From Sipunculus nudus (Eukaryota; Annelida; Sipuncula; Golfingiida; Sipunculidae): a stretch of DNA of 64,000 nt. The notes beneath the pieces were generated by a model. That model was given only the letters and a program-made list of their open reading frames with translations, had not been told where the DNA came from and ran no database searches. A program made the translations under genes and the position numbers. Of the stretch, positions 1 to 23,580 are shown piece after piece. The stretch is from contig CM049307.1 in assembly GCA_026874595.1 (NCBI GenBank), positions 32,475,862-32,539,861 of the forward strand, read 5' to 3'. Each line of letters starts with the position of its first letter. Position 1 is the first letter of the stretch.

Positions 1-129
1 CAGTAACACTGGCATAATACTATTTTTGGTTAGTTAAATCATAGTTAACTTTGGTTAGACAAGTCGTTCCTGTTTAAGTTGTTTTCGGTTCTGCAAACTT
101 CTCTTCCAGGGAAGTGAGTTCCGTTCTCT

Positions 130-907: not shown

Positions 908-929
908 AGAGAATGATATATATCCTTTG

Positions 930-1600: not shown

Positions 1601-1607
1601 CAAATAA

Positions 1608-1845: not shown

Positions 1846-2061
1846 GCAGGCAGCTCTGCTTGTCGTTAATGTGGCCGTAGAGTAGCTATTGGATACTGGA
1901 ACAGACTTTTAATGGCAGAATAATTATAGCTGTTCCGTTAGTCTCCCCCGCACCCAGACACAGACTATACCATACTGGCCGACCTAAGTGGCATCTCATT
2001 CTAGCCACTTACCAAATCGGCGACGATCATTAGATACGGCTAAAGACCCACGTCCAATATA

Positions 2062-3029: not shown

Positions 3030-3390
3030 TCACGAAATCCACAGAGCTCTCATAGAAACAACCTGTAGATGTCGCCCGGGTTCCAGGATGTCATAGAAAA
3101 AAAAGTCAGAATTCATGCTGTGGAGTAGTCTGAGCAGGCAGCAGTTGTCGTCCGTGTCACATGATTGTTTTAATTTCATCTTCTTTCCGTAATCTCTAAA
3201 GCTGAAGGAAACCTGAGGACCCGGAGAAAGCGATGCACTGACCTTGGACGTGCATGCCTCGTACAACCCTCTCTTATAGCCACCCCGGGGATCAAAACCA
3301 AATATCCAGCGGACTAGGTCGAGCGTTGTACCACTCGACTGTCCAAGCCATAGGACTCTACAGGGGCATATATCCATGTCAACCGGCTCA
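3030..3390 (-). other. unassigned coding-like segment
   Basis: A 115-residue minus-strand frame (3377 to 3030), also open upstream of its first Met. It has varied composition, with FDPRGGYKRGLYEACTSKV and DTDDNCCLLRLLHSMNSD, in DNA of higher GC than its neighbours. A run of T/A bases near 3096-3104 could hide a frameshift. In the alternative frame the sequence continues NPGDIYR and meets GTTGTT, a poor donor. I do not recognise the family. It could be an exon of an unrecognised minus-strand gene, perhaps shared with the island at 1608-1845, or a fossil. Confidence 0.25.
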
Positions 3391-3399
3391 AATACACCA

Positions 3400-5709
3400 C
3401 TATACTAATGTGATATTTAATATTTGATTACATCCAGTGGAGAAATATGACAGTAATAAATAGCTCTCACGGCATATTAACTTTCCTTCCCCGCCATGAT
3501 AGGTTAGCCTTCCTGTTGGACACCTCTGTTAACGTTGAGGTGTAATTTTCCAGGAAAAGTGGAAATAGGACCGTTATCCTGACCGTAGAAACTAACGCTC
3601 CACTTAGTCCGTTCAAGAGACTCTCTGTTGCCCTGCTTGCATTCGGCAAATATCATTAAAATATCATAAATATTCATGTACATTAACACTTAGATAAGGA
3701 GCAGTGAAAAGTTTTAGATGGCTTTGAGGAACCTCACGTCTATGTATAAACAGCTGCCTGGATTTCAGTTTAATGGATTAAGCAAAAGTGCTGGCACAAG
3801 GACATTTTTATACTTGATTACTTGTTGCAAGCTCTCAGCGTTCAGTGATAGCGCACGCAATATATCATTACTCGGCCCACTCCACAGTTGACAGGACAAC
3901 AACCATTTGTTTGGGTTTTATAAAAACTGACAGTACTTGGGCATTACTGTTTGAACTAAGAAATACTCATTATTATGATTAATATTAACAAAACTATCCA
4001 TGTAAGTTCTTTCTCATATATCCATTCCGTGTGAAAAATTTGCAATTTACGCCTGGAATTGTAAAATATGAGCATTCCAAGTATGAAGATTATAAAGTCT
4101 CGTTACCATATAAACAGCAAAAAAAAAATTGTAAAAGTGTTAATTAATACACAATCCATGAATAGAAATTGAGGGAAGGACGTCAACAGCATAAAGTCCG
4201 AGATTACCGATATACACGACGACGCAATACTTAATCAAATAAGTACTCAATCAACTAAGAACCTATGATATCAATTTAATTAAAGTCAAGAAGTTCATGT
4301 CGTCTTTTTAAGAATATGGTGTGTTTGATTGGCTCCTTCCTGGCGAGGTTCCATCAAATTAATTAAACGCACCTTCCGATGTATACAGCGAATATGAAGT
4401 CACAAAGAAAGGCCATAACGGGAGCCATTCAATTGCTTTATTAAACCAGGGGTCCTTTGTGAACGACTATATTAGTGTGGTTTATAGATCCTGGCGGTTT
4501 ATTGTTCTGCCGGGTAATGAATTATCTGTTCTTCCGAGCCTAATCACGCTAATGATGTATATGAAACGCTTGACATTTTATTACTTATTCTATATAAAGG
4601 ACATTATGGGATTATTCTTGTGTATGGGAATAAAAGAACGAAGAAAGACATATCAAATTTCTCTTATAACATATCATCATGAATTAAATTCATTTAGAAT
4701 ATTTGCTTCAAATGAATTATGGTTATTTGCCATTGTACACAGTCATTGTTGTAACTTATTTAATACCAACATGTATGTTATTTTACGGAATGTCTTACTT
4801 GGACCAATACTTTTTTACTCATTATATGCATTTTTTATCTTCAAACCAAATAAATCTTATGATGGGGTCTTAACACTTCTCTTCATGACGGTTTTCAATA
4901 TCCTTTTATTTGAAATTTCCCGTGCATGATGTTGTAATTGCATTCAGTAAAAGAAACATATATAATGATATATTTTGCCTCACGTATCTCACGTAAGCAA
5001 AATTTTCTATGAAACAAAATGTAAAACAAAAAGCTATAGTTTCCCTTTTATTGATTAATCGTTTAATTTCTTACGATAAAATTATTATATCTCCTTTAGA
5101 CCCAAAGATTTATTCTAGAAAGGATAGGGAGGTTTGCCATATGTTGAGCTTTTATATATTTCTATATTATGATATGATTAATGATATCATATGTAGCATT
5201 TCCCATCTTCTTATCACTGTTTAAGTTTAATTGTATGGAATGGATGATTTTAAGTCTTTATTTACATAAAAATGTAAATACCGTAAATACGACATGGCCA
5301 TAACTTACGTATTCTCATGCAGCCTTGACGTAAAGATCATGTTAATACATGCAAACCAAGGAAACCATGGGACAGTCATAAAAATTAACAGTATAATAAA
5401 TAGAACAAACTTTGCAAAAAAATATGCAAAATTAACGATATGAATTAATCCACAGCGCTGAGGTCCATGCTTCAGACGGATCAAATTACTGCAGTGATGG
5501 GTAGATGGTGTGGCTGCTGGGAGTATTATTTACAGAACTAAGTAATTATGTTAGCCGTCATTGTTTAATAATCACATTAACCGTGCATTAATCCAATAAT
5601 GTAATTGGTTTGAAGAGAGGATAAAGTTGATATTATATTATTTTCTAGTATTTTATTTTTGATGGCTTGAAATCATTAACTGCCACCTCTCGAAGAATAA
5701 ACATAATTA

Positions 5710-5711
<2 letters not shown>
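3400..5711. other. intergenic, nothing recognised
   Basis: Very AT-rich. The longest frame (4459-4929 plus) opens with GTG and has the hydrophobic composition expected of AT-rich noncoding DNA. No gene is supported. Confidence 0.5.

Positions 5712-5743
<32 letters not shown>
5712..5743. repeat. (TA)n microsatellite
   Basis: Uninterrupted TA dinucleotide run of about 32 bp. Confidence 0.95.
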
Positions 5744-5744
<1 letters not shown>

Positions 5745-7249
5745 TTTAGACCTAAAGGCTTAGTAATTTGTCACATTTCGCAGAAAAAAACAATATCCAC
5801 GAATTACCCGCAAGAGTATTAACATATTAATCTAACAAACTGTTCAGGTGGACAGGCCAAGGCTGTCTATATTACCTTTCTCATTACAACAGGGTCTCAC
5901 CATACCGACGTCATGATTAAATCCTACACAGAGCTTTAACTCAGTTACTAGAAGTAGATTTGTTGAGCTAAATCTATAGGTTCCCTTTGCTCATCATACG
6001 TCTTTGACTACATTATCCCAGCATTCAAACGAGAGGTGCTGGTCTTCTGACAGCTTATCTTAAAAATGAATGTTGAAATGTACTCTGGTTTAGCTCGTTA
6101 GTCCGTGAGCCGATGTACCGTACAGTGTGGTACTCATTTGTAAACTCCTTGCATGACACATCTACTTTCAAGATAGTGTCGATTCTTATTTTGTAACCTT
6201 GGTTGGGGGTACTGTTTCTTCCGCCATACTTTGCTAGTAATAGATTTGTTCAGCGTCTCTTGTTTTAAAACATTGTCTAGCAGCTAAACCACGACTGTCC
6301 AATACGCCTGTCCTTTTCTTCATTTTTTTTTTCTGGTTTGATGCAAGTGGATTTTGAAGACAAAACATGCAATACAAAGGACATTCTTTCAGTTTAGAAC
6401 TAATAGTCGATATACAATACAAATAAATAGTAGTACACAGACCGATAATAGATATAATTACAAGGTAATTAAATTCAGTTTTTATAATATATTACAAATA
6501 TTAACTTTATTAAGAATATCAGCTTTCAAAATACAAAGCCTTTTCAACACATAATTTATGCAGCAATTGAGCAGCCGTGGCGTCACTAGCTCTTTTAATG
6601 TGTTACTGGACCGTACAGAAAAGATACATAATTTCGTTAACTGGCCATTTTATAATCGAGGAATGATTAACAGAAATCTGACTTCCTATATACATCTCGC
6701 TTATTTTTCCATGTTTTTTTTTCACTGAAAATAATATGTATGGTTGGAGTTGAACAGTTAGAATTAATCAGTTATAGGTAATTAAAATTAATCATAACAC
6801 AAGCTGAGATAAATTACTTTTTTACTACCAAGACTAAATCATAACCTGTGACACATAACTTCTGTCCCTAACATTTTCTATATATGAAAACACCGATTCA
6901 GTAATGTGGAAACCCGACGACGATGCATCTCTACATATGACAGCTCGCATGGTAAATTATAAATGTGCTCCGGCTTTATTACTTTCGTTACTGTGGGGTC
7001 AGTTTGTATCCCCAAATATTTCAAATATTTCACTCTCGTGCATTTAGTCTTTGTCAAAATTGTTTTTCCTTTCTAGACATGTTAGGACATGGGAAACATG
7101 TTCTTTCTTAGTGCAAGAAAAAGATCGATTAAGAAACTCTTTTGCACTCTGTCACTGCACTACAATACCTCAAAGACCTTTGCTGTCTGTATCAACCCCG
7201 CAGAGCCTAGCGATCTTCATCTGGCCAGTAGAAGCTTGATGTCGCGAGG
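5745..7249. other. intergenic, nothing recognised
   Basis: AT-rich unique-looking sequence with no supported coding frame or repeat. Confidence 0.5.
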
Positions 7250-7595
7250 CATCAATCTAGTATGAGACTAGGTCATTCAGAACACTTGGTGCTATGTTAT
7301 GAAATGAGTTACCTTTAGCCATCCGGAAAATCAATATTTTAGAAAGCAATTCAAAACCCTCTTGCTCAGGTGTTTTCACTGAACTGTTTGTTATTAGTCA
7401 AACTTATATTTTAACTTTTTTTAAATGACGTATTATACTGTGATATAGTATCAGATTATGAATGTCTTTTATGTGTATGCTATAATACCTCAAATGGTAT
7501 TTTTTATGTGAAGCGCATAGAAGCTTGAAGTCAATTTGCGCTATATAAATGAATATAATAATAAGAATAAGAATTAGAATAAGAATAATTAGTTT
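7250..7595 (+). mobile_element. decayed LINE 3' end
   Basis: Translating the plus strand from about 7273 gives RSFRTLGAML, a stop, then NELPLAIRKI. This is the familiar WNELP motif of LINE reverse-transcriptase C-termini with the Trp codon changed to TGA. Downstream the sequence reaches GCGCTATATAAATG (about 7540) followed by a loose ATA/AAG-type simple repeat, a common LINE tail. The copy is heavily mutated and inactive. Confidence 0.6.
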
Positions 7596-8250
7596 TTGTA
7601 GTTTTTGCCGACGTGATAGCTGTCAAGTGTAAAAAACATGCATTAGACTGCAATTAAACGGTGTTTTTTAATATAGGAACTCTCTTACGTTTTCGCTGAC
7701 CATTATTATAAATCAAAATCATTTAGTGACTACTTATTTACATCATGCGCATACTTTTAGTATAACTTCATAAAGTTTGTAATCGGTTATATTGTTTTAA
7801 TGACGTTTCAGATTTGATAAGATATTAACCATCCTCAGACTTGGTAACTCACAGGTTAATGACATATATTTGTAAGTACAAATTATCAGGTCAACTGGTC
7901 TTCGAGGAGTAATGTTTTAATGAGGGTTTTAAAAGTTTGTCTTACATTGGTAAACAAGAACCATACATAAACAAGCAATGAAAATCTTCACTATACAGTT
8001 ATAGCACGATCGAGTTAATTGTCACCCGTGTTTTCTGCCTGTTTGTCTATCTCTTTTACTGGACTGTGTATCTAAAGGTGTCTTGTCTTTTGGAGGCATT
8101 TGGTATTTAGGGTTCACAGAGGATAATCTTAATCCAAAACATTGCTCCTTATTCAAAACAAGATTTGACACACAAGAACTTCCAAGCAGTTGTCATCAAT
8201 GAACGATGTCTCATATGTCTGCTCATAGATATATAACAGTTTCCCAGCAA

Positions 8251-8280
8251 CCCCCCCCCCCCCCACATACACACACACAC
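8251..8280. repeat. poly(C) plus (CA)n microsatellite
   Basis: A run of 14 C residues followed directly by ACATACACACACAC. Confidence 0.95.
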
Positions 8281-9789
8281 GTACTTACTTTCTCCAATGC
8301 AACCGTTGTTATAGCACTTTTTTGGGAGTGAACACTTTCAACCTGTGTCTGTTTACCGTAACAAGACTGCTTCACCAAAGGTCTGATCTTGGGCATGCGC
8401 GGTAACTCATAAATACTGAGAAGCATCTTGCAAGAAGATACATCGCAGAAACACTGGTTTGAAGCTTGAAAAATCTTGATTTGTGAAGTTGCAATGTACG
8501 ACCACCAGATAGAGTGCCTGCTTTATTTATGTTTGCACCACTGATCGCGCCCGGTATAACGTCATAGAATAAACTTTATTTAACACTCAAGACATAAGAA
8601 TTGTATCCTTTAAAAATGACCAGGGGAGAATAGGTCCGAAAGTTTCAGAAAATGGACAGGGGTAGGTAAATGGAGAGCACAATCAAGCATTCAACAATTA
8701 CCTTAAAGTTATGTATAATATAACATTAACCATATGACATAAACCTGCTGACGTTGTTAACAGAACTACAGATAAAATGCACAGCATTACAGTAATGGTA
8801 AAAAATGTGTAGTCAAACAGTTTTGCCTTTCCCAGAAAAAAGAACTGCTTTTCAGTCGACAATTATAGGTAAATAATCATGCACAGTATATATGTGACAA
8901 AAATGGTTGTGGAAAATATGTGATTCCCCTTTGATTGCTCAATCGGTAAAGCAGTAAGGTAAGGATTGAGAATAGTGTCTATGTCGGGGCAGCTGGACTT
9001 TTGTTGATCTGTTTTCTTGCCTGTAGGGGCGTGCGGTTTGTAGTTACCTTGGCGTGCTTCTCGATTGAACAAAGTAGTAGCAGGGGCATAGCAATTCCTT
9101 ATCATCGATTCAAATAAAAAATTAAAGAGGAATATTCAAATACTTCCGCTTTCAAGACATGGGTGATTAGCTCTTTTATATAAACCGTCCATGTAACATC
9201 TCGCCACCGACAGGCCTAAAAAACACACACTTTTGTATGTCGTATCGATGCCGGGATTTTCTGCAACATTGAAAGACTTACATCAATCCAGTCACAATAC
9301 TGCATCGACAGCCACAAAAGAGAACGCTAAACGTTCAGAGAAATAAAAAAGGGGCGCTTAACCATAAAAGGGTTCTGAAACAGAGCACTTCCTCTGAGCG
9401 AGATATTGAACACGTGTTTTAAACTCATGGATAGAAATGCTAAATGCGTCATTTGATATGTTCCTTGAGCATTACGTGGCAACAATATTAGGATAAAGGC
9501 CGATAAATTGTAAACGGGGCGTATCGATGCCAACGTTTTCCTGGTAAGCGTATAAGAGTTACAGGTCACGTGATATGCTTTAGTTTATGCAGCTGTTGAA
9601 TTCCTATACCTACCAGCGACCTCAGGACCGTCTTTCATTCATATATTTATTCATATATTTATTCCATTTTCAGCTCCTCAGCCTTTAAGCGTTATCCTAT
9701 TGAGACTGTGGGCTTTTTTTGTGTTTGTCAAAGTGTTAACCGTTCCTGTTTTCGTGATTACTTGAGGTAATTTCTTCGCGCGTGACAGG
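8281..9789. other. intergenic, nothing recognised
   Basis: Only short shadow frames. No domain, RNA gene or repeat recognised. Confidence 0.45.
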
Positions 9790-10056
9790 GGTTTTACTCG
9801 GTTATTCTGGTATCAACCAGGTTCGATGTGCCAGTCCTGGATGTGTGCCATCCCTATTGCTGGATCAAAACACCGAGGACCCCCAAAGGGGCACTCGTTT
9901 GTGAGTGAAATATGACTGTTATGCACAGTCTCCCCATTAAGCCTGCAGAGCGCTACCCTGGGTGGGGGCCGACCGTGAAAAATCTCACCATCTCGGCAGA
10001 TTTGAACTCCCGACTTTGAGTCCTGCGCTCTACCGCTGAGCCACAGAAGCATGTCA
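9790..10056 (-). mobile_element. tRNA-derived SINE
   Basis: The minus strand begins with a tRNA-like head. An A-box-like TGGCTCAGCGGTAGAGCG lies at 10042-10025 and a B-box-like GAGTTCAAATC at 10009-9999, with normal spacing for an internal pol III promoter. A non-tRNA body of about 200 bp follows. The cloverleaf is not intact, because the anticodon stem does not pair cleanly, so this is a SINE copy and not a tRNA gene. Its 3' boundary near 9790 is approximate. Confidence 0.7.
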
Positions 10057-10059
10057 GAT

Positions 10060-13000
10060 TATGCCGAGGTCTCTCCCATGTGATTTCAGCGTCCGCCAGA
10101 TATCTACACATCCTTTCGAAAATAGGTGACATGAGGACCTGTTTTTACACTTCATACATTGTTTCTTTGAAGTAATAATCAAATATCACGATGATTTTAA
10201 ACATTAATATTTTGTTCGCTTTTGACCACCTTTATCCAAGTGTACAGGGTACGGAATGTTGATATTTTATATTTGCCTAACATGAACAATATTGATTTAC
10301 ATTCAATCATTTCTAAAGAATATTTTCGGCGGCATTTCATATCAAGTAACCTCATTAGGGGCATGGTTTGGCGATAACGCTCAGATTGTGACAATTAGTG
10401 TCAGGCCTGACAGATTACAGATCAACAATTCCATCCCCAAATTGCTCTAATGACATACGCAATTAAACGTCCTTAGCTTCTCTATGGGTCTGCAAGGGAG
10501 GCCCTCAGGTAAAATCGGATAAAACTGATAAATAATTTACACTAGGCGATGTCCAACAGGCATCATTATAGGGACAGGAATGTCGTGATGTTGCACAAAG
10601 CCCGACTTCCATATGATAACTTGTGAAAACTCCATGTTCATTAATATCGATATAGGTTTTGCCAATTTGTTATCGTAAGCATCAGACTTAAGGAAAGAAA
10701 CACCATAACCTGAAACCTTAAAAGGGAAATGTAATATGTTAAAACACGAACTCGCGCTCTCGCTCAACAAACGCGGTTGTCAACCTGGCCCAGCTCATAA
10801 ATGTGGCAAAAACTTCAGACTTTCATGATTTCTCCAATTGTTGCGATAGTCATGACTTCATTTGTTTAATTTTTAATTTTTCGCACCAGATATCAGTTGG
10901 AAGTTGAGTCTTGTTGATTCAGGCATTCAGACATTGCGTCCCAATCTTTCAGACATCAGAGTTAGCAGCGTATCGCAGATTTTTTTACTTTTATGATTTT
11001 TATACTTTCACCTTTTATTTGAGACTCAGCCTTATGGGCCACGATATCATACTTCATACATTTTTGGTCAAACTGCAGGGGTGGTGAACTGAAACATTTA
11101 TGTATTCTTATTCGTTAGATGGACCTAAGGGAAACTAAACGAGTAAACAACGGGTCTATCGATCCTTAAACCCTTCGTTGATGTTTCGTTACTGCAATCT
11201 GTATTTTAAGTAACAAATTATCGTTAGTCTCTTTTGTTAGCATTTCTAGGAAGGGTCTAAGCAGCATCCAATGCTCCTTTTCCTATGCTCTTCTGTCGAG
11301 GAAGGTTGTTTTGAAAGATTATATTTCTTAGGTTGCGGATAGACAGAAACGACGAAGAGTGCTTTTTAACCAATCGTCTCCATGACGTGCACTTTGCCAG
11401 GCCGGTGTCAATCTTTACCCGTACGATTGCAACCACTGCACATGTACAGAAATCTGCATAAAAGCTTTATATGACACTATAAAAAAGCGGTTCTTTATTT
11501 TCAGAGTGGAGGTCTAACTAGGTATCCAGGTACCATATTTATGTTAACGCTTTTTCAACCAACTATAGACAGTTTAAAATTTTATTATTCTAATAAAATA
11601 TTGGTTTATAATTAGGTTTAAGGCTTAAAGCCTAACGAATACTTTACATAAGTTTTAGAGGGGACAATCCAGCTGATGAGATTATGGGTCAACATTCATC
11701 ACTTTGAATCTCATTATCATTTACTTGTTTGTTTGCCAATTTTGTTAAGACTTGTAGGATGACAAACAGAAACATTTATATCCTGCTGAAACATATGAAG
11801 TGATGGTCTAAGGCATAATATACGATGGTTGAGCATACAGGTGCTGATACTGTGAAGTGGCTGATACGTGTCAGTCTCAAAATACCCTAGCCGGTAAAGA
11901 TACAAAAAAGAAAAAAAAATTAGATGCCACATCTACGTGATTCAAAGGATAATGCTGTAAGGTCAACAACTATCACTAAGAAATTAAAACGTTGGTATGC
12001 TTTGTCTCAAAATTGCCTGATGGTTGAGACATTTCAAAACTGTTCGGTCGAATTACTTTTGAGGATCCCAAATTTATATGCAGGTTTACAGGAATATATG
12101 TTTTATTAATAAACATACTTTCAGTATGATATTCAAAAGCGAACTGTACAATTGCTTTATTAATACCCTGACAAGACTTGATTTTCTAATAATATTAGCA
12201 GACTTAGTGCTCATAGGGCAGTTAAAGAATTCACGGCTGAAATACTCACCAAGTTGCTGTTAATCGGCTGTTTTATCAACAATACAAGTACAATGCGATA
12301 TAAATGAATTCAAGATACAGCTTGCACCACCAGCCTTTAGCTCCCTATATATTTTCTAGAGTTAATGAGAATACACAGATTTAAGAAAACGGGAAACTCA
12401 TTTGCTCATTACCGAGAAACTACACAAAACATTTCTGTTATTTGACTGTAAACATGCGTTAAAGGATAGTAAAATTAGAGCTTGCACCGCTAGTCTTGTT
12501 CATCTCATTAACCATACCAAGTTTCTGTACTATAACTTATTGTACAGTTGAACCTAAAATCATGAATTAAACTTGGAAGTCTAGAAAAAAGTTAAAACTG
12601 ATCAAAATTACAAAAATATAGGTAACTATCAATGCTCAATCAGCATTTATGTTTCAGGATAATAAATAAACCCAAAGCTGAGAACACTCCACGTTTGCTG
12701 TGATTTGATAGTCCCATAAATACATATAAGAATATATATAAGAATAAATATATAACAGATGGTGCCACTTTTCTATATCAACCAAAAAAAACCAGAAGGT
12801 CAATGATGAAGTGCTCATCCGGCACCTCCGCATAATTAATAATGTCATTTTCACCAGGCACATGAAATTACCTTTTGATCAGAAATTTGGTATTTTGGGA
12901 GGTGCAGGTTAAAGTTTTGTGTAAAGTTTGAGAAGGCGGCTCGAAGACTAATCAGATAAAACAAGCATTTTTTGTTATTTAAAAAAAGCTTGCATAAATA

Positions 13001-13369
13001 TGCATAATCAATAAATTTCTGTCTAGAAGTTTAAAGCCATCGCCTGGCCCTAACAGTAAAAAAAACTAAAATGTGTCAAGAAATTAAGGAGAAGATGTGC
13101 TTTGTGGACGTCAGCCGCATGGAAATGACCTTATCTCATCGGGCTAATGGCTGGATGTGCTAAAAAATTGAAAAGGACATATTCCGATACCTGACGTGTA
13201 CAAAATAAAGATAATATATTGAAACTTTTATATAAATGAAGCAAATAAATATAACTTAGGGGATCATAAAGTGCACCGGCTGTCTGTTTTTGTTTATATC
13301 ATACAACGACTGCTGCGCATTCAGTCACCTGCAGTCACGTTGTTTTTCTGTTCGTCAACATTGGCACGT
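10060..13369. other. intergenic, nothing recognised
   Basis: About 3.3 kb of AT-rich sequence with scattered short frames. Nothing supported. Confidence 0.45.
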
Positions 13370-14150
13370 GTACCGCGTGTTTACTAACAGCATGTAGATT
13401 AACAGGTTATGCATCTGTCACAGGGCGTTATAAGAACTCTTCTGAGCAGGAATTAACTAGAGACTATAACTGTTAACCCAGAGTGTTTGTCAACCTGGGT
13501 ACCATGTTTACTAATAGCATGTAGATAAACAGGCTCATGCATCTGTCACAGGGCGTTATAAGAACTCTTCTGAGCAGGAATAAACTAGAGACCATAACTG
13601 TTAACCCAGAGTGTTTGTCAACCTGGGCACGGGTACCATGTTTACTAATAGCATGTAGATAAACAGGCTCATGCATCTATCACAGGGCGTTATAAGAACT
13701 CTTCTGAGCTGGAATAAACTAGAGACCATAACTGTTAACCCAGAGTGTTTGTCAACCTGGGCACGGGTACCATGTTTACTAATAGCATGTAAATAAACAG
13801 GCTCATGCATCTATCACAGGGCGTTATAAGAACTCTTCTGAGCAGGAATAAACTAGAGACCATAACTGTTAACCCAGAGTGTTTGTCAACTTGGGCACGG
13901 GTACCATGTTTACGAATAGCATGTAGATAAACAGGCTCATGCATCTATCACAGGGCGTTATAAGAATTCTTCTGAGCAGGAATAAACTAGAGACCATAAC
14001 TGTTTACCTAGAGTGTTTGTCAAAATGGGCACAGATACCGTGTTTACTAATAGCATGTAGATAAACAGGCTCATGCATCTATCACAGGGCGTTATAAGAA
14101 CTCTTCTGTGCATGAATTAACTAGAGACCATAACTGTTAACCCAGACTGG
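13370..14150. repeat. 134-bp tandem satellite, six copies
   Basis: The landmark GTTTACTAATAGCATGTAG and variants recur near 13376, 13505, 13639, 13773, 13907 and 14041. The period is 134 bp, with a slightly shorter first unit. Copies are nearly identical in the middle and diverge at both ends, as expected for unequal exchange. Overlapping minus-strand frames of 67-69 codons are produced by the repetition and are not genes. Confidence 0.95.
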
Positions 14151-14253
14151 TAGAGAAATGATAGGCTTACGAACGCTTCCAGTTTATCCCCGGCCGGGTG
14201 ATGGCACGCGATCGCCTTCAAAGCGGTTCTCAGTGATATTGAAAATAAACTAG

Positions 14254-14380
14254 AGTGTGGAGAGCACGGCCAGATTTCATAAAGTAGAGAGCACGTCCAG
14301 ATTCCAGAGTGTGAGGAGCATCTCCAGAGTCTATAGTGTACAGAGGACGTCCAGAAGTCATCGTGCAGAGAGCACGCAGC
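14254..14380. repeat. 27-bp degenerate minisatellite
   Basis: About five units built on GAGAGCACGTCCAGATTCCA with 27-bp spacing, starting about 100 bp after the 134-bp satellite. Confidence 0.75.
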
Positions 14381-14399
14381 TTTGGTCAGTACCATTTAT

Positions 14400-15178
14400 T
14401 GCTCATTCATGGCGGCACCTAGTGTGTAAATTAGGAATTATAAGCCAACATATTGGCACAATTGCTTGACTGGATTTGTAATTCGTTATACAAGTGGTTA
14501 CATCAGACAAAAACATATGTGCGACCATTTTAGTATTGACACGTCTTTTATCAATAATTATCTAATTAGTATATGTAAGAGACATGTGCATACTCACCCA
14601 CTACAAGCGATTTATGTCTGTTTCATTTATTTTCTCTCATGTTAACCATAGGTATGATGATACAATTAAGTAACTGTGGACCACTATTGCGAAGAAAAAT
14701 GGGAGAGAAAATATAAGTATATAAACTGAGTTTACTACTTCTACTTTAACCATTATTCACACTACTACGTACATACACTGTAACTATTGATATTACCATA
14801 ATTATCGTTATAAAAGTTACTTGATCTTCTCTCGTTACATTACAACAACAAAATAAGGGTTTCCTATGTAATCGCGCCACCTGTTCAGAACACTGAAATA
14901 AAATAAATACTTGTTTATACATTTTATCAAAAGAATTGTTAGATAAATAGGTAGGTGAAAATGAAATGTTTAATCCGTGTGCATTCAGTATGTTTCTATA
15001 CAATCATGTACACGTATACAGTACATCAGGTGTAAATGATTAGTACAGACTGATCTAACCACGGAGACCTGCAGTAAATCGTCAGACGCCCCCGATAAGA
15101 CACGCTTTTTTTGTTTGCAGCTTCAACCAGGAAGCAAAGCATACAGGAAGCAGCCTATCACGGCGTCACGTGCTCTAT
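14400..15178. other. intergenic, nothing recognised
   Basis: No gene or repeat recognised before the poly(G) tract. Confidence 0.45.
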
Positions 15179-15199
15179 GGGGGGGGGGGGGGGGGGGGG
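15179..15199. repeat. poly(G) tract
   Basis: Run of about 21 G. A second run of about 14 G lies at 15449-15462, just upstream of the predicted NLR promoter. Confidence 0.95.
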
Positions 15200-15493
15200 A
15201 CGAAGTCATAGGTCAAAGGTTCAGGTAGCCAGACGGTCTAAAAGAACTCCAGGAGATAATCACAGTTTTACTTAAGAAAACTGATTTGAAGATTTTTTTA
15301 AACAAGATTCAGTTTAAATAAGGACAATGGCAACCGTCTATCCTAGTCAAATGTACAATTAAACACTTATCATATTACCTAAGCTAAAATCAATCTTTAG
15401 AATGGCAAAGCCTAGTTACTGATAAGATAATTAAACAGCGGGTGACGTGGGGGGGGGGGGGGCGTGTTATAAGCATTACTGAGTATTGACAGC

Positions 15494-15545
15494 TGACGTC
15501 AGGTAATTGACCTATAAAACAGCTTGTGGAGAGCTCTCAGATTAG
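15494..15545 (+). promoter_or_regulatory. predicted core promoter of the CARD-NACHT gene: CRE, TATA box, initiator
   Basis: A perfect cAMP-response-element palindrome TGACGTCA (15494-15501) is followed by TATAAAA (15513-15519) and an initiator-like TCAGATT whose A lies at 15539, 26 bp after the first T of the TATA box. These elements and their spacing are what a focused RNA polymerase II promoter shows. The transcript would start about 40 nt before the donor of the predicted first exon. The start site itself is inferred. Confidence 0.5.
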
Positions 15546-15579
15546 TGAGTGCCAGGAGACAGTCGACAGGGCAAATAAT
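15539..15579 (+). other. predicted exon 1 of the CARD-NACHT gene (5' UTR plus first two bases of the start codon)
   Basis: About 41 nt from the predicted initiator to a good donor, AAT|GTGAGT, at 15579/15580. The exon holds no complete ATG. Its last two bases, AT, would join the G at 17385 to make ATG GAC CTG CTG, with A at -3 and G at +4. This is inferred from sequence; I have no transcript evidence. Confidence 0.45.
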
Positions 15580-17066
15580 GTGAGTCTATGTATAAAACTT
15601 TATATGTTTAAAAGTAGCTGGGTATGCGTGTATATATATGTGCGTTTGTTTGCTCAAAATGCAGTTAATAATTTTGATAAGAGGTACAAATCTGTAAGGT
15701 GTTTGGGTATTAATAATAACGTATAACTACTTAGATAAGAGGTGCTGATGTGTAAGGTGTTAGGGTATATGATAAAAAATAAGATATGAAATTCACCTTG
15801 CTTAAACGTGCTGAAATGTGTATCAAAGCGTGTGTGAGTTATTATATGAGAAAAGGGACAGGAAATCACATGATTGTTTATATTTATTAAGACGTACATT
15901 ATAATACCTAAAAAGTATTGTATGGGTGACTCGTGATGTTTAGCACAGATATCAGATGAAACTGATCCAAGAGTGTTTTATCTTGCTGAGCACGGAAAGT
16001 TTTAAATTCAGTTTTGTATCTTGTGCTGACATCTGGTGGAACAGTCATTACTACTGAGAACTTTGATCAAGTGTTTGTTTTTGGCGATTGGGAGAGGGCT
16101 GGTGATTACATGTAACGGCTTTGATTGTTATTGTATTTTTTTTTACCTGAGGGGTACCTAAAAACAATGACATATACAAAAATGTATTAAAGGTGCCCAT
16201 TCACCTAGCTTATGAAAAAGAATTTATGTGATATCTGGCTTCCTCTGTGTATATATTAATGATCTAAGGGAAATTTTGATTGTGGAAAGTTCTTATAAGG
16301 CCGTGGTAAAGGATGTAGGGACTTGATTATCAACAATATGTTTGTAAACACAGCAATGTTGACAAACGGCAAAATCATGTAACCTAAGGCGGTAGGTTGT
16401 ATATATTCGGAGGTAGAAAGGTCACTTGTAGCAAAATGCCATTTGCAAAGCTCTTCCTTATCTGACTTGCTGCCAGATGCCCTTGTTGAATTTGTTTTGA
16501 TTTTATTTTTGCGGGCCCCGCATATTTCAAACACGTTGATATAGACAAAACAAGCAGCTGGTGTGTGGTGATATCCATGTTTTCTGGCCTATTTTTTATA
16601 AAAGCTCCAAGGGATTACCTTTAGTTTATAAAGGTCAGATAGGGGATTTGGCCCCTTTAAGCGAAACATATCACTTTTTAACTTAACATTGATATGCTGT
16701 ATTAAAATTAGGATATGATATACCCTGAACAACATTTATTAATGTGGCCTTCATACACTTAGTACAAAGCTTGAAGATTACATCTTAAGCCTCTCAATAT
16801 TAAACTCCAGTGCCCTCAAGCCGATACAGATGTCTCGGGCTGATATAACCCGTAATAACTGGAACAGAATATATGAACCGGGCATCTTGCGTCGTGCCGC
16901 GTGAGCCAATATACAATTATAAGGTTGTTAAATGGAATGAAAGGGATGTTCTCTCTGATTCATACAAAGGTTTACAAAGACTGTTATGAAACTGTTCTTC
17001 ATTTATATAATTCACGAAATAAATACACTTTATTTTTAAAATAATTTGTTTTAGATATGTTTTGAT

Positions 17067-17120
<54 letters not shown>

Positions 17121-20100
17121 TTGCAATTATTAAAATTATAATTTTTTAATTGTAATGGAAAAAAAAACTATATCTTGTAAATGATTGTGGCACTAAATCG
17201 TTTTCTCGCAACATTTCTGTGTCTATGACTGGGAAATGCCCTTCCATTGTCTAAAAGAGTCGGAAATGATGGCAAATATGTCCTAACTGGGGCCATTTTC
17301 CATATCCTAATAGTCTATTTAAAGCACTATAGACATCACAGTCTCAAGTTATTATGAAGTTATTATAGTCATCTGCTTCTCAAGGGACCTGCTGAGCGAC
17401 AAGAGGCGACAGTGGCTGAAGAGAGTGAGAGTGAAACTGATGGAGACCATACAGCTTAACGCTTTGGTGTGGGCACACCTCAGACAGTATGGCGTCGTCA
17501 CGCAGATAGAGCAAGAAAAAATGGTGCATTACCACAACACCAGTCACTACAAAAAAATTCACATGGCTACACATGTTATAATACTACATTCACACGGCTA
17601 CATCTGTCACAATACCACATTCACAATACAACACCTGTCACCAAACCATATTAACTCGGCAACCACCTCTCATAGTTCCACTTTCACACGGCAACACCGG
17701 TCACCATACCACATCTACACGGCAACACCGGTCACCATACCACATCTACACGGCAACACCTGTCACCAAACATCATCCACATGGTAACACCTGTCACCAA
17801 ACTACATACACACGGTAACACCTGTCACCATACTACATCCACATGGTTACACCTGTCACCATACTCCATCACTTGTCACCATACTACATCCACATGGTAA
17901 CACCTGTCACCAAACTACATCCACATGGTAACACCTGTCACCATACTACATCCACATGGTAACACCTGTCACCATACTCCATCCACATGGTATCACTTGT
18001 CACCATACTACATCCACATGATAAGACCTGTCACCATACTACATCCTAACGGTATCACTTGTCACCATACTACATCCACACGGTAACATCTGTCACCATA
18101 CTACATCCACATGGTAACACCTGTCACCAAACATCATCCACATGGTAACACCTGTCACCATACTACATCCACATGGTAACACCTGTCACCATACTCCATC
18201 CACATGGTATCACTTGTCACCATACTACATCCACATGGTAACACCTGTCACCATACTACATCCTAACGGTATCACTTGTCACCATACTACATCCACACGG
18301 TAACACCTGTCACCATACTACATTCACATGGTAACACCTGTCACCATACTACATCCACATGGTAACACCTGTCACCATACTACATCCACACGGTATCACA
18401 GGGGCGGATCCAGGATTTAGGGGAAAGGGGGGGGGGGGGTTCCAACCAAGGAGGACTAATGAAAAACCCAAAAAAGATCACCAGGTCCGGAAAAGGGGAG
18501 TCCAGCCTGCAAAATTTTGTCTGAAACCAATAAAGAAAGCTTGCAGCGGACGAAAGGGGGGGGGGGGGGACCACTCCCGTGGATCCGCTTCTGTATCAGT
18601 TGTCACCATACTACATCCTCATGGTGTCACTTGTCGTCATACTACATTCACATTGCAGCAATTTTCACCAAGCAACATGCACACGGCTACACCTGTTACT
18701 ATCATATCAAACTAAAAAAACACAAGTTAAAACTTACACATTATAACATTCACAAATTACTCGTGTGTTTATTAATACATATTTGTCACTACAACAATTG
18801 TACTTTAATCACTCGTTATATTACATGATCTACAAGTCTTTTGTCCTTACCACATAATACCTGTTCCATGAACACTTCAATCATTAATTATCAGTAACCT
18901 ACTCTATGCCAAATCACATATTTTAGAGTAGTCTCCCTTTTTCATTACCACATATTAACCACATTCATTCGTTAGCCACCTGTAACCATACACAAACCGT
19001 AATGAATTCTTGGTTTCGTGACTTCATATATATGTTAGCGCTTTTCCCCTCAAAACCAGTCTTTCCCACTTACTTCATATCTTAAGTTATTATAACCTAA
19101 AATGAAGAGCAAGAAAATATATCTTTCTTTGGAGTACAGGGCCCCTGCAATTAATATAATATATGCAACATTTATCTCTTTTATCTTTCCAGCAAAAGGA
19201 GCCAAACTCGTGTCAGGTAGGGTGGCTGATTGATAGCATCCTGGGACGCACTAATTCGGATTATGACAAGACGTGTCAGGCGCTTGAATTGTCCAACCAA
19301 AAACACGTGGCTCAGATACTCCAAAACCCTGAAGGCAAGCAATCTGTTAAGGAACAATGTGTTACCAAAAAATGTGGCACAAATGACAAAAAATCCCATA
19401 TCTAGAATCAATCCAAAAAGTTGTCTTATATTCATAATATACCCAATAAAGTATACATTATTTAAAATTTATTACAGTGTTCTTTCTGATGACATATAGC
19501 TTTTCATTAATTTTGACATGATTTTGATAGAGGAAAAACAAAAACCCACTTGTGAGATAGTGTCATGTAGTTTAATACTGCTCCGCTAAAAGTAGACTTG
19601 CTTTTTTCTGGGTGATTAACGTCCATTTTTTTAATAAAAAATTGTTAAAATATCATATGAAAATGAATAAAATTTACATATGTATACCATCAGAAGAAAC
19701 ACTGTATCAGGTTTTAAACAGTGTATACTTCATGGTTTAAATATAGATTTAAAAAAATTTGATTGATTTTAGATACAACGGAATATGCCAGTTTTGCTAC
19801 TCAAACAACATAAATGCACTTACAGTCAGGGCTCGCTATTAATAAGCAACAGAGATTCTTAACATACGTTAAAGCATTTTGAGATAAATTTATCTGTATT
19901 ATTGTACGGAACTGCCATTGCAATTGGTTTTACCAATGCAATAACGAATCGGACGTTAAAATAAAAAATGGTTCAGATTTATTCAAGATCAACTTCTACT
20001 CTTTGAACCGTTAATATATTTTTCAACATAATCGTCATTAAATGGAGGTCCTGTGTTACCAGGGGTATTGTTGGATGACTGGCGCAATCTACTGGCCGAG

Positions 20101-23100
20101 CACTACATCGACCACTATGGAAGGATGCGAGTCAACACCCACGGCGACGATGAGAGGGAAGCCCCTATAGACGAACTCTATACAGACACGTGTCTGACTA
20201 TACATGACGCGACTCCAAGTGAACCGGTCGAAACCAAACTACTCAGCTTCTTATCCAAGGTAAACTGCTTAAAAAAATCCACGGTCACATCATAATACAC
20301 TGGGGCAGTTACAGACTCCTAAAAAACAAGGGGGGGGGGGGGATCCCTGGCACAGGTAATTAATGATTCTTAAATACTCTATATCACAGAGGAGTAACTG
20401 AAACATGATCAGTCTCCCTTCAGTTAGTTTCTGCAAAGTTTTTTTTACTGTGTATACACAATTTCAAGCAAACATAGTGAAAACTGTTGCTCAGTTTACC
20501 TTATATATCTCGATTTTAATATACAAGTTTCCCTATTAAATAAAAAGACTTGAATGTTAAAAGTACTTAACACATATCGACATTTGTTATTATATGATGT
20601 GTATTGAAAATTTTACAAAATTATTTTTCCTCACGTGTACGAGTTGTACGAGGGGAGTTTGCCTTGGACCTCAGATTAAATTGAATCTGTATATAGATGT
20701 TTATTCCATCAAAGGTTTGCTTTGTGATAACAATGAGATCGATCATACAATTGCCCGAGTACATGACTCATTCAGCTATGAGCAGCTATGTTTTAAGTAT
20801 TCACTTTGAAAAAAAAAAACAATATGTAAAATATCTATGACAACAGTTGGGTGGTACGGACAACAAAAACGTATAGAAAATTGCAAAAGGATTTTATGTG
20901 TATATGTACAAGTAACACAAGTCAGAGTGGACCTTGGACTGGTCCAAACTTAATTGAGTTTTACAAGTTGTCTTTTTAATATTTGTAGCACGCAGCTTGT
21001 TTCTCCAATAGGCTGTTAAGTACAAAATTGGAAAAACAAAACTTTATGGAAGACTTTTAATGAATGTATAAGAGAGTAATAATAGAGATACTAGGGAAAC
21101 AGATATAAAGCTGAAAATCGCTCATGATTTCAAACTCTAAGCAATTCGTTTTTGTGACGGACTAACAATTAACGTGCTTTGACATATGAACCAAATAATG
21201 ATTATTATTATTATTATTATTATCATCATCATTACAGGCGAACGGTAATCTCATATACATTAAAGGACCACCAGGAAGCGGCAAATCAACACTAGTAAAA
21301 CGCTGTTTAGTGTTGTGGTCGAAAAGTGTTCAGGAGAGTAACGCAGTAGAAACAATGTATGATCTGGTCTTGTGCACATGTGTTGATACAATGGAAAAAG
21401 GAAAAGATTTTACCATTAAAGACATTCTTTGCGAGCGATTCAACTCTGATACTGAAGAAGTCCTCAAATTCATGGAGGCGAACCCAGACCGGGTTCTGAT
21501 TATATTTGATGGGATACACCTTCTGGATCAAACAAGGTCGAAGGAGATAACAAGCATCATCCACGGACATACTCTGCGAGGTGTTTCCAAAATAGTCACA
21601 GCACGTGACATATGGCCGACCAATGAAATAGACAGACGTGTTACACGTGACTACACAGTCATGGAACTTCACGGATTCAATAAACAGCAATGTTCCACCT
21701 TTATAGGGAAATATTTCAGACCAACCATTGCAGGCACAGTTAATATGCCAAACCCTGATGAGGAAGTCAAACTAGGGGAGCTTCTTGATGCTGAATTAGA
21801 ATCAAGGAAACTTAAAGATTTGTATCAACTTCCGATCCATCTGAATCTTGCTTGTCAACTTTGGCACACAGAAAGAAAGATATTCCCCAGGCGTACAGAT
21901 CTATATGCTGCTGAACTGCAAATCATGCTGGATCAGGATCACCATGTCAGATTCAGACCAATTCAATTAAGCTTAGAAAACCTGAACAGATATGGTGCTC
22001 ATGTCATAAGCTTTGGGATAAGGGTTTTCATGCAGCTTATAGATTTATCAAAAATATCTGGAAGTGAAGAAAGAGACGAAGTACTGAGGTTTGGGGCCAA
22101 ATTAGGTCTCTTTGAAGAGAGTCAAGAGCATGGTATCGGACGACAGGTTATATACCTGAATATCCCGATGATAAGGTTTTTGGCTGCATATGCAATTGTT
22201 CATGTAGAGGGATATTTCAACAGGTTTATGTCTCATGTCCAGACAACTGAATGTCTTCATAATTTCCATGAAGTTGTTTTGTTTGTCTGTGGGCTTTCCG
22301 AGGCGTGTGGTAACAGAATCCTTGCGCATGCTATTCACCTGAGTTGTTATGACGCAAAGGGTGTTTCATCCAGTAAATTTCCTCACTTCTTACCCAAAAT
22401 CGGTAACGTATGGAAGGCTAGACTGAGATCATCAAGAAACATTAGCTTCTTTATCTCTCGGTGTCTTCGAGAATTCAACAACAAAACGCTGATCAACCTA
22501 CCGTTACCTGACAGGTTAACTATCGACCTGGGAGACTTAGATAACAGCCTCATAGCCTGGTTCAGGTCACAGGCTGGTCAATCTGCGGGTGTTCAGCATA
22601 TAACTATAAACAATGGACGGTTATCCCAAATGGTATGGAAAAGTATCTCAGCAGCTATAAATCTGACGGAGGTGAGAAATGTCTACCTGGAGCTCGATGC
22701 CATCGAGGACGTCAAGGATCTAGCTCACAGCATTCGAGAGACCCGACTAAGCAGCCTCCAGTATCATGTAACAGATGTGACGGAAGAGCAGACTACCGAT
22801 CTTGTACAATCTATAACCGAACCCAAAAGATTAATGCGGTTTAATGTTTCACACTTGAAGCTGAATCAGTGTGCTGATATATTTTGGCGAAAGGTTGCAC
22901 AGATGGACAGATTAGTGCGGTTGTCTGTGAGGAGCGTTGACTTGTCGTATCTAGGTGAAAACGTTAGCTCCCTCGCAAACTCAGCATGCTTGACTCAGCT
23001 TGTACTGGAAGATACAAACCTCTCTGATTCACAGGTACACGCCTTGTGTCATGGCCTGGTTAGAACCTCAAAGAATCCTCTATTACCAGCGGTTCCATCC

Positions 23101-23580
23101 CCAAACAAAACACTCGTCTGGTTAGACCTCAGTAAAAATGACTTGCGTCGTTCCATCAACGTCTTCAGTAAAACTTTGCCAAAGCTCTCCTGCTTGAAGA
23201 TGCTGCATGTTAACTACTGTAGAATCACAGAGGATTGTTTCAAAGATATTGTCCTGAATTCACCGTCATCGCTGCTTGCCTTGCACGTCGCACACAACCG
23301 AATACAGACAGCTCACTGGATGGCTAGTGGTCCGGTTCCGCTGCCGGAGAAACTTAGGTTTGTCCTGTGTAAGGAGAATCATATGTCCGACCATCAGGTC
23401 CAGCAGATGGAAAGGGCATGGAAAATGTTTCTGCCAAACATCACTTTTTTGTACAATGAAACGACACTGTCAGACTACCAGGACAAACTGAGGAGATGTC
23501 ATACAGAAATCATACGCAGTGACATCCAGGGTATGCTTAAAAAGGAAGATGCAAGAAAAAAGGACGAAGATTTCACGTAA
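15578..23580 (+). CDS. NOD-like receptor (CARD-NACHT-LRR protein), five-exon model
   Basis: This is a predicted cytoplasmic innate immune sensor. In this family LRRs sense a signal, NACHT oligomerises using ATP and CARD recruits a CARD adaptor or kinase. My model joins 15578-15579, 17385-17523, 19193-19334, 20063-20259 and 21238-23580, giving 941 codons including stop. Residues 1-92 match a CARD, with WLKRVRVKLMETIQL and LRQYGVVTQIEQEKM in helices 1-3 and LIDSILGR to VAQILQ in the second half. Walker A is GPPGSGKST (170-178). The Walker B position reads FDGIHLLD (250-257), so the acidic pair after DG is replaced by His-Leu. TARD (281-284) fits sensor 1. LPIHLNLACQLW (358-369) fits the GxP-type motif region. 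Degenerate LRRs span about 634-890, with LVWLDLSKNDL the clearest. A charged tail ends the protein. NACHT and LRR calls are firm. Exon 1 and the exon 2 donor are predictions. Confidence 0.85.
16191..16656. mobile_element. 466-bp MITE flanked by TTAA (copy 1)
   Basis: Flanked on both sides by TTAA (16187-16190 and 16657-16660). The ends are imperfect inverted repeats: left AGGTGCCCATTCACCTA, right complement AGGGGCCAAATCCCCTA. A second copy, clearly homologous along its whole length, lies at 38494-38957. TTAA target sites suggest piggyBac-type transposition. It encodes nothing and sits in intron 1 of the CARD-NACHT gene. Confidence 0.8.
17071..17118. repeat. (CT)n microsatellite
   Basis: Uninterrupted CT run of 48 bp in intron 1 of the CARD-NACHT gene. 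Confidence 0.95.
17385..17523 (+). CDS. CARD-NACHT gene exon 2: CARD helices 1-3
   Basis: Acceptor CTTCTCAAG|GGACC. The frame reads DLLSDKRRQWLKRVRV, then LMETIQLNALVWAHLRQYG and VVTQIEQEKM, the typical first half of a CARD. The only phase-0 GT at the expected place is ATG|GTGCAT, a weak donor. This keeps the frame into the next exon. Confidence 0.75.
17555..18700. repeat. 31-bp minisatellite
   Basis: More than thirty units built on ACACCTGTCACCATAC followed by TACATCCACATGGTA. The edges are degenerate. The array lies inside the intron that splits the CARD and is interrupted at 18399-18593 by a MITE. Apparent frames in it are artefacts of the repeat. Confidence 0.95.
18399..18593. mobile_element. 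195-bp MITE inserted in the minisatellite, 5-bp target duplication
   Basis: Begins CAGGGGCGGATCCAGG and ends with the complement of CAGAAGCGGATCCACGG, so the termini are imperfect inverted repeats. TATCA stands immediately before (18394-18398) and after (18594-18598). Removing the element and one TATCA restores a minisatellite unit. Two G-rich tracts lie inside. The terminal sequence resembles hAT-derived elements, but the duplication I see is 5 bp, not the 8 bp usual for hAT. Confidence 0.85.
18720..19192. other. remainder of intron 2, nothing recognised
   Basis: AT-rich sequence between the minisatellite and the next CARD exon, ending with the acceptor TTTATCTTTCCAG. Confidence 0.6.
19193..19334 (+). 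CDS. CARD-NACHT gene exon 3: CARD helices 4-6
   Basis: Acceptor TTATCTTTCCAG|CAA, phase 0. Reads QKEPNSCQVGWLIDSILGR, then SDYDKTCQALELSNQKHVAQ and ILQNPE, the second half of a CARD. The phase-1 end that matches the next exon is GAAG|GCAAGC, a GC donor with otherwise standard consensus. A GT alternative at 19346 would be out of phase with the next exon. Confidence 0.75.
19335..20062. other. intron 3, nothing recognised
   Basis: AT-rich intron bounded by the GC donor and the acceptor GTGTTACCAG. Confidence 0.55.
20063..20259 (+). CDS. CARD-NACHT gene exon 4: linker before NACHT
   Basis: Phase-1 acceptor TTACCAG|GGG and donor TCCAAG|GTAAAC, phase 0. Reads VLLDDWRNLLAEHYIDHYG, RMRVNTHGDDE and APIDELYTDTCLTIHD. 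The Trp/Tyr-rich helix followed by an acidic DELYTD segment resembles the stretch that precedes NACHT in other NLRs. Confidence 0.8.
20260..21237. other. intron 4 with poly(G) and ATT repeats
   Basis: Contains a poly(G) run at about 20331-20341 and an (ATT)n tract at about 21199-21224 just before the acceptor ATCATTACAG. Confidence 0.8.
21238..23580 (+). CDS. CARD-NACHT gene exon 5: NACHT NTPase, winged-helix region, LRRs
   Basis: A 780-codon open exon that opens ANGNLIYIKGPPGSGKSTLV directly after ATTACAG and ends at TAA 23578-23580. It holds the whole NTPase, a winged-helix-type segment (IPMIRFLAAY, residues 470-478) and LRR-like repeats. One large exon carrying NACHT plus LRR is common in animal NLRs (family knowledge). 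The antisense frame at 21307-21690 is a shadow. Confidence 0.93.
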   Translation, partial: ANGNLIYIKGPPGSGKSTLVKRCLVLWSKSVQESNAVETMYDLVLCTCVDTMEKGKDFTIKDILCERFNSDTEEVLKFMEANPDRVLIIFDGIHLLDQTRSKEITSIIHGHTLRGVSKIVTARDIWPTNEIDRRVTRDYTVMELHGFNKQQCSTFIGKYFRPTIAGTVNMPNPDEEVKLGELLDAELESRKLKDLYQLPIHLNLACQLWHTERKIFPRRTDLYAAELQIMLDQDHHVRFRPIQLSLENLNRYGAHVISFGIRVFMQLIDLSKISGSEERDEVLRFGAKLGLFEESQEHGIGRQVIYLNIPMIRFLAAYAIVHVEGYFNRFMSHVQTTECLHNFHEVVLFVCGLSEACGNRILAHAIHLSCYDAKGVSSSKFPHFLPKIGNVWKARLRSSRNISFFISRCLREFNNKTLINLPLPDRLTIDLGDLDNSLIAWFRSQAGQSAGVQHITINNGRLSQMVWKSISAAINLTEVRNVYLELDAIEDVKDLAHSIRETRLSSLQYHVTDVTEEQTTDLVQSITEPKRLMRFNVSHLKLNQCADIFWRKVAQMDRLVRLSVRSVDLSYLGENVSSLANSACLTQLVLEDTNLSDSQVHALCHGLVRTSKNPLLPAVPSPNKTLVWLDLSKNDLRRSINVFSKTLPKLSCLKMLHVNYCRITEDCFKDIVLNSPSSLLALHVAHNRIQTAHWMASGPVPLPEKLRFVLCKENHMSDHQVQQMERAWKMFLPNITFLYNETTLSDYQDKLRRCHTEIIRSDIQGMLKKEDARKKDEDFT

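What the first reader, a model, noticed from the sequence alone, without database searches (positions are those of the whole stretch)
15539..17400. Start codon assembled by splicing; unspliced RNA reads ATG-TGA
The predicted first exon ends AAT at a GTGAGT donor and the first CARD exon begins G GAC CTG CTG. Splicing AT to G creates the first ATG of the mRNA, with A at -3 and G at +4, exactly in the CARD frame. If the intron is kept, the same AT followed by GTGAGT reads ATG TGA, a start-stop pair. Translation of this immune receptor would therefore depend on removal of intron 1. No other in-frame ATG lies upstream of helix 1 in the CARD exon.
Basis: partly seen in the sequence, partly recalled or inferred. 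Interest (0 to 1): 0.75.

Follow-up and report, generated by a model that had tools for sequence, protein, structure and literature searches.

The report
Start codon possibly rebuilt by splicing
An animal immune-receptor gene seems to have lost the start codon that most compared relatives keep in one exon, and the predicted splice junction would rebuild it at the same place; the start-stop seen in unspliced RNA follows automatically from normal splice-site sequence and is not a special switch.

Summary
The sequence facts are right. Joining 15579 to 17385 gives ATG GAC CTG CTG in the CARD frame, and the unspliced reading is ATG TGA. The gene is a predicted five-exon CARD-linker-NACHT gene in a 1.43-Gb animal genome.

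Paralogs add the key evidence. In 13 of 19 CARD first-half exons compared, the likely start ATG lies inside that exon. The split ATG falls in the same place: 15 codons before a conserved Arg, against 14-16 in six of the 13. A paralog on C3 reads ATG GAC CTG CTG AGC GA. The window has AGG at that triplet, so one T-to-G difference removes the start and supplies the AG acceptor; exon 1's terminal AT would restore ATG.

Against this: the acceptor is AAG, which I assigned nowhere else in the family, and lies 43 nt from the Arg, against 52-76 in paralogs. The TAG acceptor for 17369 (59 nt) fits the family place but leaves no start. A phase-compatible coding exon can be drawn at 16830-16900. The promoter and AT signals are common by chance. 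No RNA data were available.

ATG-TGA is automatic: any AT before GTRAG reads ATG-TAA or ATG-TGA. Split start plausible (0.5); dedicated switch unsupported.

The parts
15513..15519 (+). TATA-like box (TATAAAA) of the predicted promoter
   Evidence: prediction only, 13 comparable TATA/initiator pairs on + strand of the window
15537..15543 (+). initiator-like TCAGATT, A at 15539
   Evidence: only TATAWA + YCANWYY pair on + strand in 10001-17385
15539..15579 (+). predicted noncoding exon 1, ends AAT; last two bases = AT of the split start codon
   Evidence: donor AAT|GTGAGT has 32 of 3485 GTs in the window scoring higher (generic recalled weight matrix)
15580..17384 (+). predicted intron 1 (1805 nt), GTGAGT...AAG
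   Evidence: no RNA evidence
16830..16900 (+). rival coding exon MSRADITRNNWNRIYEPGILRRA with phase-2 donor GTGAGC, open into the CARD frame (acceptor 16811 also possible)
   Evidence: exons as good in 10 of 69 other stretches of the same length (recount)
17367..17368 (+). rival, probably ancestral acceptor TAG; exon from 17369 would start 14 nt before the AGG triplet
   Evidence: 59 nt from the conserved Arg; CAG/TAG acceptors at 52-76 nt in 11 of 13 paralogs with an in-exon start; but 9 pyrimidines of 17, against 12 of 17 for 17385
17383..17385 (+). AGG triplet at the homologous place of paralog start ATG; its AG is the predicted acceptor
17385..17523 (+). CARD exon a (first half of CARD), donor ATG|GTGCAT (weak)
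   Evidence: donor place from alignment by eye to L002
19193..19334 (+). CARD exon b, GC donor AAG|GCAAGC
   Evidence: GT donor at the corresponding place in paralog L002
20063..20259 (+). linker exon
   Evidence: like a linker exon of L002, compared by eye
21238..23580 (+). NACHT and C-terminal exon, stop at 23578-23580
   Evidence: PF05729 E=4.1e-19

Best explanation
This is a CARD-NACHT receptor gene whose start codon formerly lay inside the CARD exon, a few bases after the acceptor of a 5'-UTR intron, as in 13 of the 19 paralog exons that I compared (11 of them with such an acceptor). In this copy the homologous triplet is AGG instead of ATG. That change removes the start and places an AG where a new 3' splice site can be used. 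Splicing from the noncoding first exon, which ends in AT, to this site puts AT next to G and rebuilds ATG at the ancestral first codon (MDLLSDKRRQ...). Shown: the sequences, frames and paralog comparison. Inferred: direction of the change, use of the AAG acceptor, use of exon 1, translation. The ATG-TGA of unspliced RNA is a by-product of the donor consensus.
For: Joined reading and favourable start context. CARD matched over profile positions 1-83 of 85 with the split start (33.4 bits) against 21-83 (23.5 bits, cut-off 23.9) if Met20 is the start; the match begins at residue 9, so it shows that coding must begin upstream of Met20, not where. Start inside the exon in 13 of 19 paralog CARD-a exons; distance to the conserved Arg 14-16 codons in 6, 18-20 in 6, 34 in 1; window 15. 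L029 reads ATG GAC CTG CTG AGC GA with an in-frame stop between its acceptor and the ATG; L020 also has a stop just before its ATG GAT. In the NACHT tree the C3 gene of L029 lies across a supported split (96/96) from the window and from other genes with in-exon starts, so the in-exon start looks old; the root is midpoint only. The C3 pair L029/L030 shares a conserved upstream block with a GTGAGT donor, intron 1409 nt in L029, a similar layout. The stretch before 17385 is richer in pyrimidines than that before 17369 (12 against 9 of 17).
Against: No RNA evidence. The acceptor is AAG; the six internal acceptors of the window and L002 that their alignment fixes are CAG or TAG, and so are those I assigned in other paralogs by eye, though there I looked for such. 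It is closer to the CARD core (43 nt) than the 52-76 nt of paralogs, whereas 17369 is at 59. 24 of 84 AGs in 15650-17400 score higher on a crude scale. The AT donor and the TATA/initiator pair are each expected about once in 7 kb by chance. The CARD-a donor GTGCAT is weak, so the gene may be decaying. The window branch in the NACHT tree is long and unplaced, and L011, which pairs with the C3 gene there, has no in-exon start. The nearest CARD relative (L002) starts in a separate upstream coding exon. The C3 pair shows no TATA box, and its upstream block holds ATGs within 230 nt of the donor (one in L029, two in L030), so its exon 1 is uncertain. Exon 1 of the window has no copy in the genome at E 0.001.
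Confidence: 0.5

Rival explanations
1. The family's usual acceptor (17369, TAG) is still the one used. The AGG change simply destroyed the start codon, so the transcript starts at Met20 inside helix 1 or the gene is a recent pseudogene, and the AT of exon 1 is coincidence.
For: 17369 is 59 nt from the conserved Arg, inside the 52-76 nt range of 11 of 13 in-exon-start paralogs; TAG rather than AAG; crude score 7.79 against 7.06; weak CARD-a donor; an AT-ended GTRAG within 7 kb is expected by chance.
Against: The 792-codon NACHT exon and all other coding exons are open. A Met20 start leaves profile positions 1-20 of the CARD unmatched. Fewer pyrimidines precede it, 9 of 17 against 12.
Confidence: 0.25
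2. The CARD exon is joined to an upstream exon with a complete ATG, so no split start exists. Candidates include 16830-16900 (MSRADITRN..., phase 2 to 17385) and 10484-10508 (MGLQGRPS, phase 1 to 17369).
For: Such a coding exon precedes a phase-2 intron in the C17 paralog L002 (MGKTQSKSGQ), and a like exon is in L026 (MGKTCSKSRR). The 16830 exon has an acceptor and a phase-compatible GTGAGC donor and is open.
Against: Equally good exons occur in 10 of 69 other stretches of the same length. By eye it does not resemble the MGKT exons. Only two MGxxx[STC] readings exist in the forward frames of 1-17384 (4606, 11684), and no donor scoring 3 or more opens from either in the phase-2 scan. 13 of 19 paralogs carry the start in the CARD exon.
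Confidence: 0.2

Closest known systems
Invertebrate CARD-NACHT-LRR receptors (NLRC type), e.g. in oyster and Lingula (PMC11508797, passages read)
   Same: CARD and NACHT recognised by Pfam, in this order in the predicted exon chain; 57 scored genomic matches to the NACHT exon (capped)
   Different: LRR match weak here (LRR_4 E=0.087); start codon apparently split by intron 1
Mammalian olfactory receptor genes whose initiator ATG is recovered in an upstream exon (PMC7055050, passages read)
   Same: A multigene family in which copies without the usual in-exon start regain one through an upstream exon
   Different: In the passages read the initiator ATG lies in the upstream exon; here the upstream exon gives only AT
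Engineered split start codon rebuilt by ribozyme splicing in a plant reporter (PMC12363958, one passage read)
   Same: A start codon in two halves that splicing joins
   Different: Engineered, with reconstitution of two halves by a ribozyme device; here a natural predicted cis intron
Start-stop elements in 5' UTRs (PMC11057154, passages read: 5.0% of 18,764 human MANE 5' UTRs hold one or more)
   Same: ATG followed directly by a stop
   Different: Here it exists only in unspliced RNA and follows automatically from AT before a GTRAG donor
Start codons split by an intron in other eukaryotic genes (recalled, no call)
   Same: Initiator codon spans an exon junction
   Different: Here paralogs suggest how it arose: ATG to AGG making the acceptor

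Membership tests
CARD-containing NLR (NLRC-like) | N-terminal CARD | tested here: met
   PF00619 E=4.6e-8, 33.4 bits over cut-off 23.9, on the joined exons a and b
CARD-containing NLR (NLRC-like) | NACHT NTPase with P-loop | tested here: met
   PF05729 E=4.1e-19; GPPGSGKST
CARD-containing NLR (NLRC-like) | C-terminal leucine-rich repeats | tested here: inconclusive
   LRR_4 E=0.087, below cut-off
Gene with intron-split start codon | Donor after A or AT and acceptor before TG or G, in frame with the ORF | tested here: met
   (sequence level)
Gene with intron-split start codon | The junction is used in mRNA | not testable with these tools
   no transcript data
Gene with intron-split start codon | Initiation at the junction ATG | not testable with these tools
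   no ribosome or protein data

The most novel reading that the evidence does not exclude
The two acceptors 16 nt apart (17369 and 17385) act as a switch: choosing 17385 gives a translatable receptor mRNA with a junction ATG, choosing 17369 gives an mRNA without a start for the whole CARD, so a splice-site choice sets receptor dose.
Probability: 0.06. Interest if true: 0.6.

Novelty: new variant of a known kind. Interest (0 to 1): 0.32.

Why it matters
If the junction is real, it is a concrete case of one substitution that both deletes a start codon and supplies the splice site by which the neighbouring exon restores it, inside a diverging immune-receptor family. Gene prediction may miss or truncate such genes (inference). 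If it is not used, the gene has probably lost its start or starts elsewhere.

Tried and rejected
A hidden coding exon like the MGKTQSKSGQ exon of the C17 paralogs: two MGxxx[STC] readings in the forward frames of 1-17384 (4606, 11684); no donor scoring 3 or more opens from either in the phase-2 scan. Weaker donors from 4606 were not tested.

DNA copies of exon 1 (15440-15640) and of the rival exon (16780-16940) elsewhere in the genome: each search returned only itself at E 0.001; that tool skips very common words, so this is not proof of rarity.

A NACHT tree to place the window: long branch, unplaced.

Literature on split start codons: searches listed no paper whose listing describes one in a natural nuclear gene. 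The terms were narrow, one search showed 25 of 29, and most papers listed were not opened, so this says nothing about absence in print. Opened for passages and found beside the point: PMC12513839, PMC7200024, PMC10849350. PMC12363958 describes an engineered split start codon.

A dedicated start-stop regulator: rejected as automatic; the 10 AT-preceded GTRAG sites counted read ATG-TRA by construction.

Mended on checking: the control count for the rival exon is 10 of 69 other stretches, because one search's 11 of 70 included the exon's own stretch; the tandem array starts 36 nt after the CARD-a donor, not at it.

Full report
What is there. The window lies in a 1.43-Gb, 153-contig genome at C2:32475862-32539861. 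The species was not tested; an animal is clear from the gene family, a mollusc is a guess from recall. The gene runs on the + strand through five predicted exons: 15539-15579 (noncoding), 17385-17523 (first half of the CARD), 19193-19334 (second half), 20063-20259 (linker) and 21238-23580 (NACHT and C-terminus). Joined, they give an open reading frame of 940 residues and one stop. Pfam finds CARD (E=4.6e-8) and NACHT (E=4.1e-19); LRR is only hinted at (E=0.087). The internal boundaries were set by eye against a paralog on C17 (L002): the CARD-b donor is GC here (AAG|GCAAGC) and GT there, and the CARD-a donor here (ATG|GTGCAT) is weak, with 513 of 3485 GTs in the window scoring higher.

The observation. 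The donor AAT|GTGAGT is outscored by 32 of 3485 GTs in the window by a generic, recalled weight matrix. Chance controls are sobering. AT precedes 10 of 71 GTRAG sequences on the + strand, and 2 of the 10 in 10001-17384 (14575, 15580), so one such donor in 7 kb is expected. TATAAAA at 15513 with an initiator-like match is the only such pair on the + strand in 10001-17385, but 13 occur on the + strand of 64 kb, so it too is expected about once. The unspliced ATG-TGA needs no explanation: AT followed by GTAAG or GTGAG reads ATG-TAA or ATG-TGA.

Paralogs. I compared 19 paralog CARD-a exons with the window. They were taken from the fetched hits and are not all the hits: alone listed 35 matches, of which 10 were cut out as loci. 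L032 and L033 are identical in the stretch shown, and L026 and L024 look damaged (in-frame stops). I take as the start the outermost in-frame Met downstream of the candidate acceptor with no stop between it and helix 1. It lies inside the CARD-a exon in 13 of 19: L006, L007, L020, L021, L022, L025, L029, L030, L032, L033, L034, L035, L037. Five have no in-frame Met there (L002, L011, L016, L023, L024). L026 has one 27 codons up but no candidate acceptor passing the filter, and has an upstream MGKT exon. Measured from the conserved Arg of helix 1 (His in L030, Lys in L023 and L024), the start lies 15 codons upstream in L029 and L020, 16 in L007 and L030, 14 in L022 and L025, 18 in L006, 19 in L032, L033, L034 and L035, 20 in L037 and 34 in L021. 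The junction ATG of the window lies at 15. In 11 of the 13 a CAG or TAG acceptor with at least 10 of 17 pyrimidines sits 52-76 nt before the Arg, which is 4-19 nt before the ATG; L006 and L021 have none in that span.

The most telling paralog is L029 on C3. Its gene has the CARD-a exon (PF00619 E=0.00033, 21.1 bits for the half domain, under the cut-off of 23.9), a linker-like exon and a NACHT exon (tblastn E=5.8e-15 with the window NACHT); LRRs were read by eye. The exon reads ..aacag TCTTTAAAAAAAACTATAC ATG GAC CTG CTG AGC GAA CAA CGC AGA CAA, with an in-frame TAA between acceptor and ATG. The window reads ..tag TCATCTGCTTCTCA AGG GAC CTG CTG AGC GAC AAG AGG CGA CAG. The two share GGACCTGCTGAGCGA. 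Overall similarity of this pair is weak (42%, E=4.9) and L002 is the nearest CARD relative (48-49%), so the 15-base identity may partly reflect shared codon choice. In the NACHT tree of nine rows the C3 gene and L011 are split from the window and six others at 96/96 (midpoint root; L011 only 20% filled). In-exon starts occur on both sides of that split, which makes them the likely ancestral state, although L011 itself has none. The window's own branch is long and unplaced. The C3 gene and its relative L030 share a conserved upstream block with a GTGAGT donor (intron 1409 nt in L029), a layout like the window's. There is no TATA box within 300 nt, and ATGs lie within 230 nt of the donor (one in L029, two in L030), so their exon 1 is inferred from conservation only and its start is unknown.

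Mechanism. Best reading: the ancestral start ATG became AGG; the new AG serves as acceptor; the noncoding exon 1, which ends in AT, restores ATG at the same codon. Shown: sequences, frames, homologous position. Inferred: direction of change, splice use, translation. I give it 0.5 because three results pull the other way. First, the acceptor would be AAG. The six internal acceptors of the window and L002 that their alignment fixes are CAG or TAG, as are those I assigned elsewhere by eye, though there I looked for such sites. Third, a phase-2 coding exon with a complete ATG can be drawn at 16830-16900, though exons as good occur in 10 of 69 other stretches of the same length. If 17369 is used, the first in-frame ATG is Met20, and the CARD then matches only profile positions 21-83 at 23.5 bits, under the cut-off of 23.9.

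Comparison. The gene is a CARD-NACHT receptor of the kind described for oyster, abalone and Lingula (PMC11508797, passages). A family in which copies recover a start from an upstream exon is described for olfactory receptors (PMC7055050, passages). Start-stop elements are known 5'-UTR features (PMC11057154, passages). An engineered split start codon is described in PMC12363958 (one passage). Natural split start codons in other genes are recalled, not found by my searches. The new part is the likely route by which this one arose. It is a variant of a known kind and of modest interest until RNA data exist.

Noticed in passing
L002:967-999, L026:2400-2432 (C17 37.98-38.01 Mb); also L024:2412: CARD-NLR paralogs on C17 carry a separate small first coding exon reading MGKTQSKSGQ or MGKTCSKSRR (a like MGQAGSKRR reading in L024, donor not checked), which resembles an N-myristoylation signal (motif recalled) and suggests membrane-anchored CARD receptors.
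   Followed up: partly
G000 genome-wide, e.g. C5:42523300-42532400 (L047, L048): About 50 dispersed, near-equal-scoring copies of a pair of opposite-strand ORFs roughly 3 to 3.6 kb apart, both matching CARD, some with a further CARD ORF (a capped list: 150 of 650 candidates scored): a high-copy repeated element that carries CARD genes. Two of the three L047 ORFs scanned have no Pfam match over a curated cut-off; the third is CARD.
   Followed up: partly
window 17560-18399: Tandem array of 31-bp units, about 27 copies, starting 36 nt after the weak CARD-a donor; it may have altered the donor's surroundings.
   Followed up: partly
window 18402-18593: G-rich stretch (..GGATCCAGGATTTAGGGG..) with a 75% identical copy beside the C3 paralog, so probably a dispersed repeat.
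   Followed up: no
window 19334-19340: GC donor (AAG|GCAAGC) in CARD exon b where paralog L002 has GT.
   Followed up: partly
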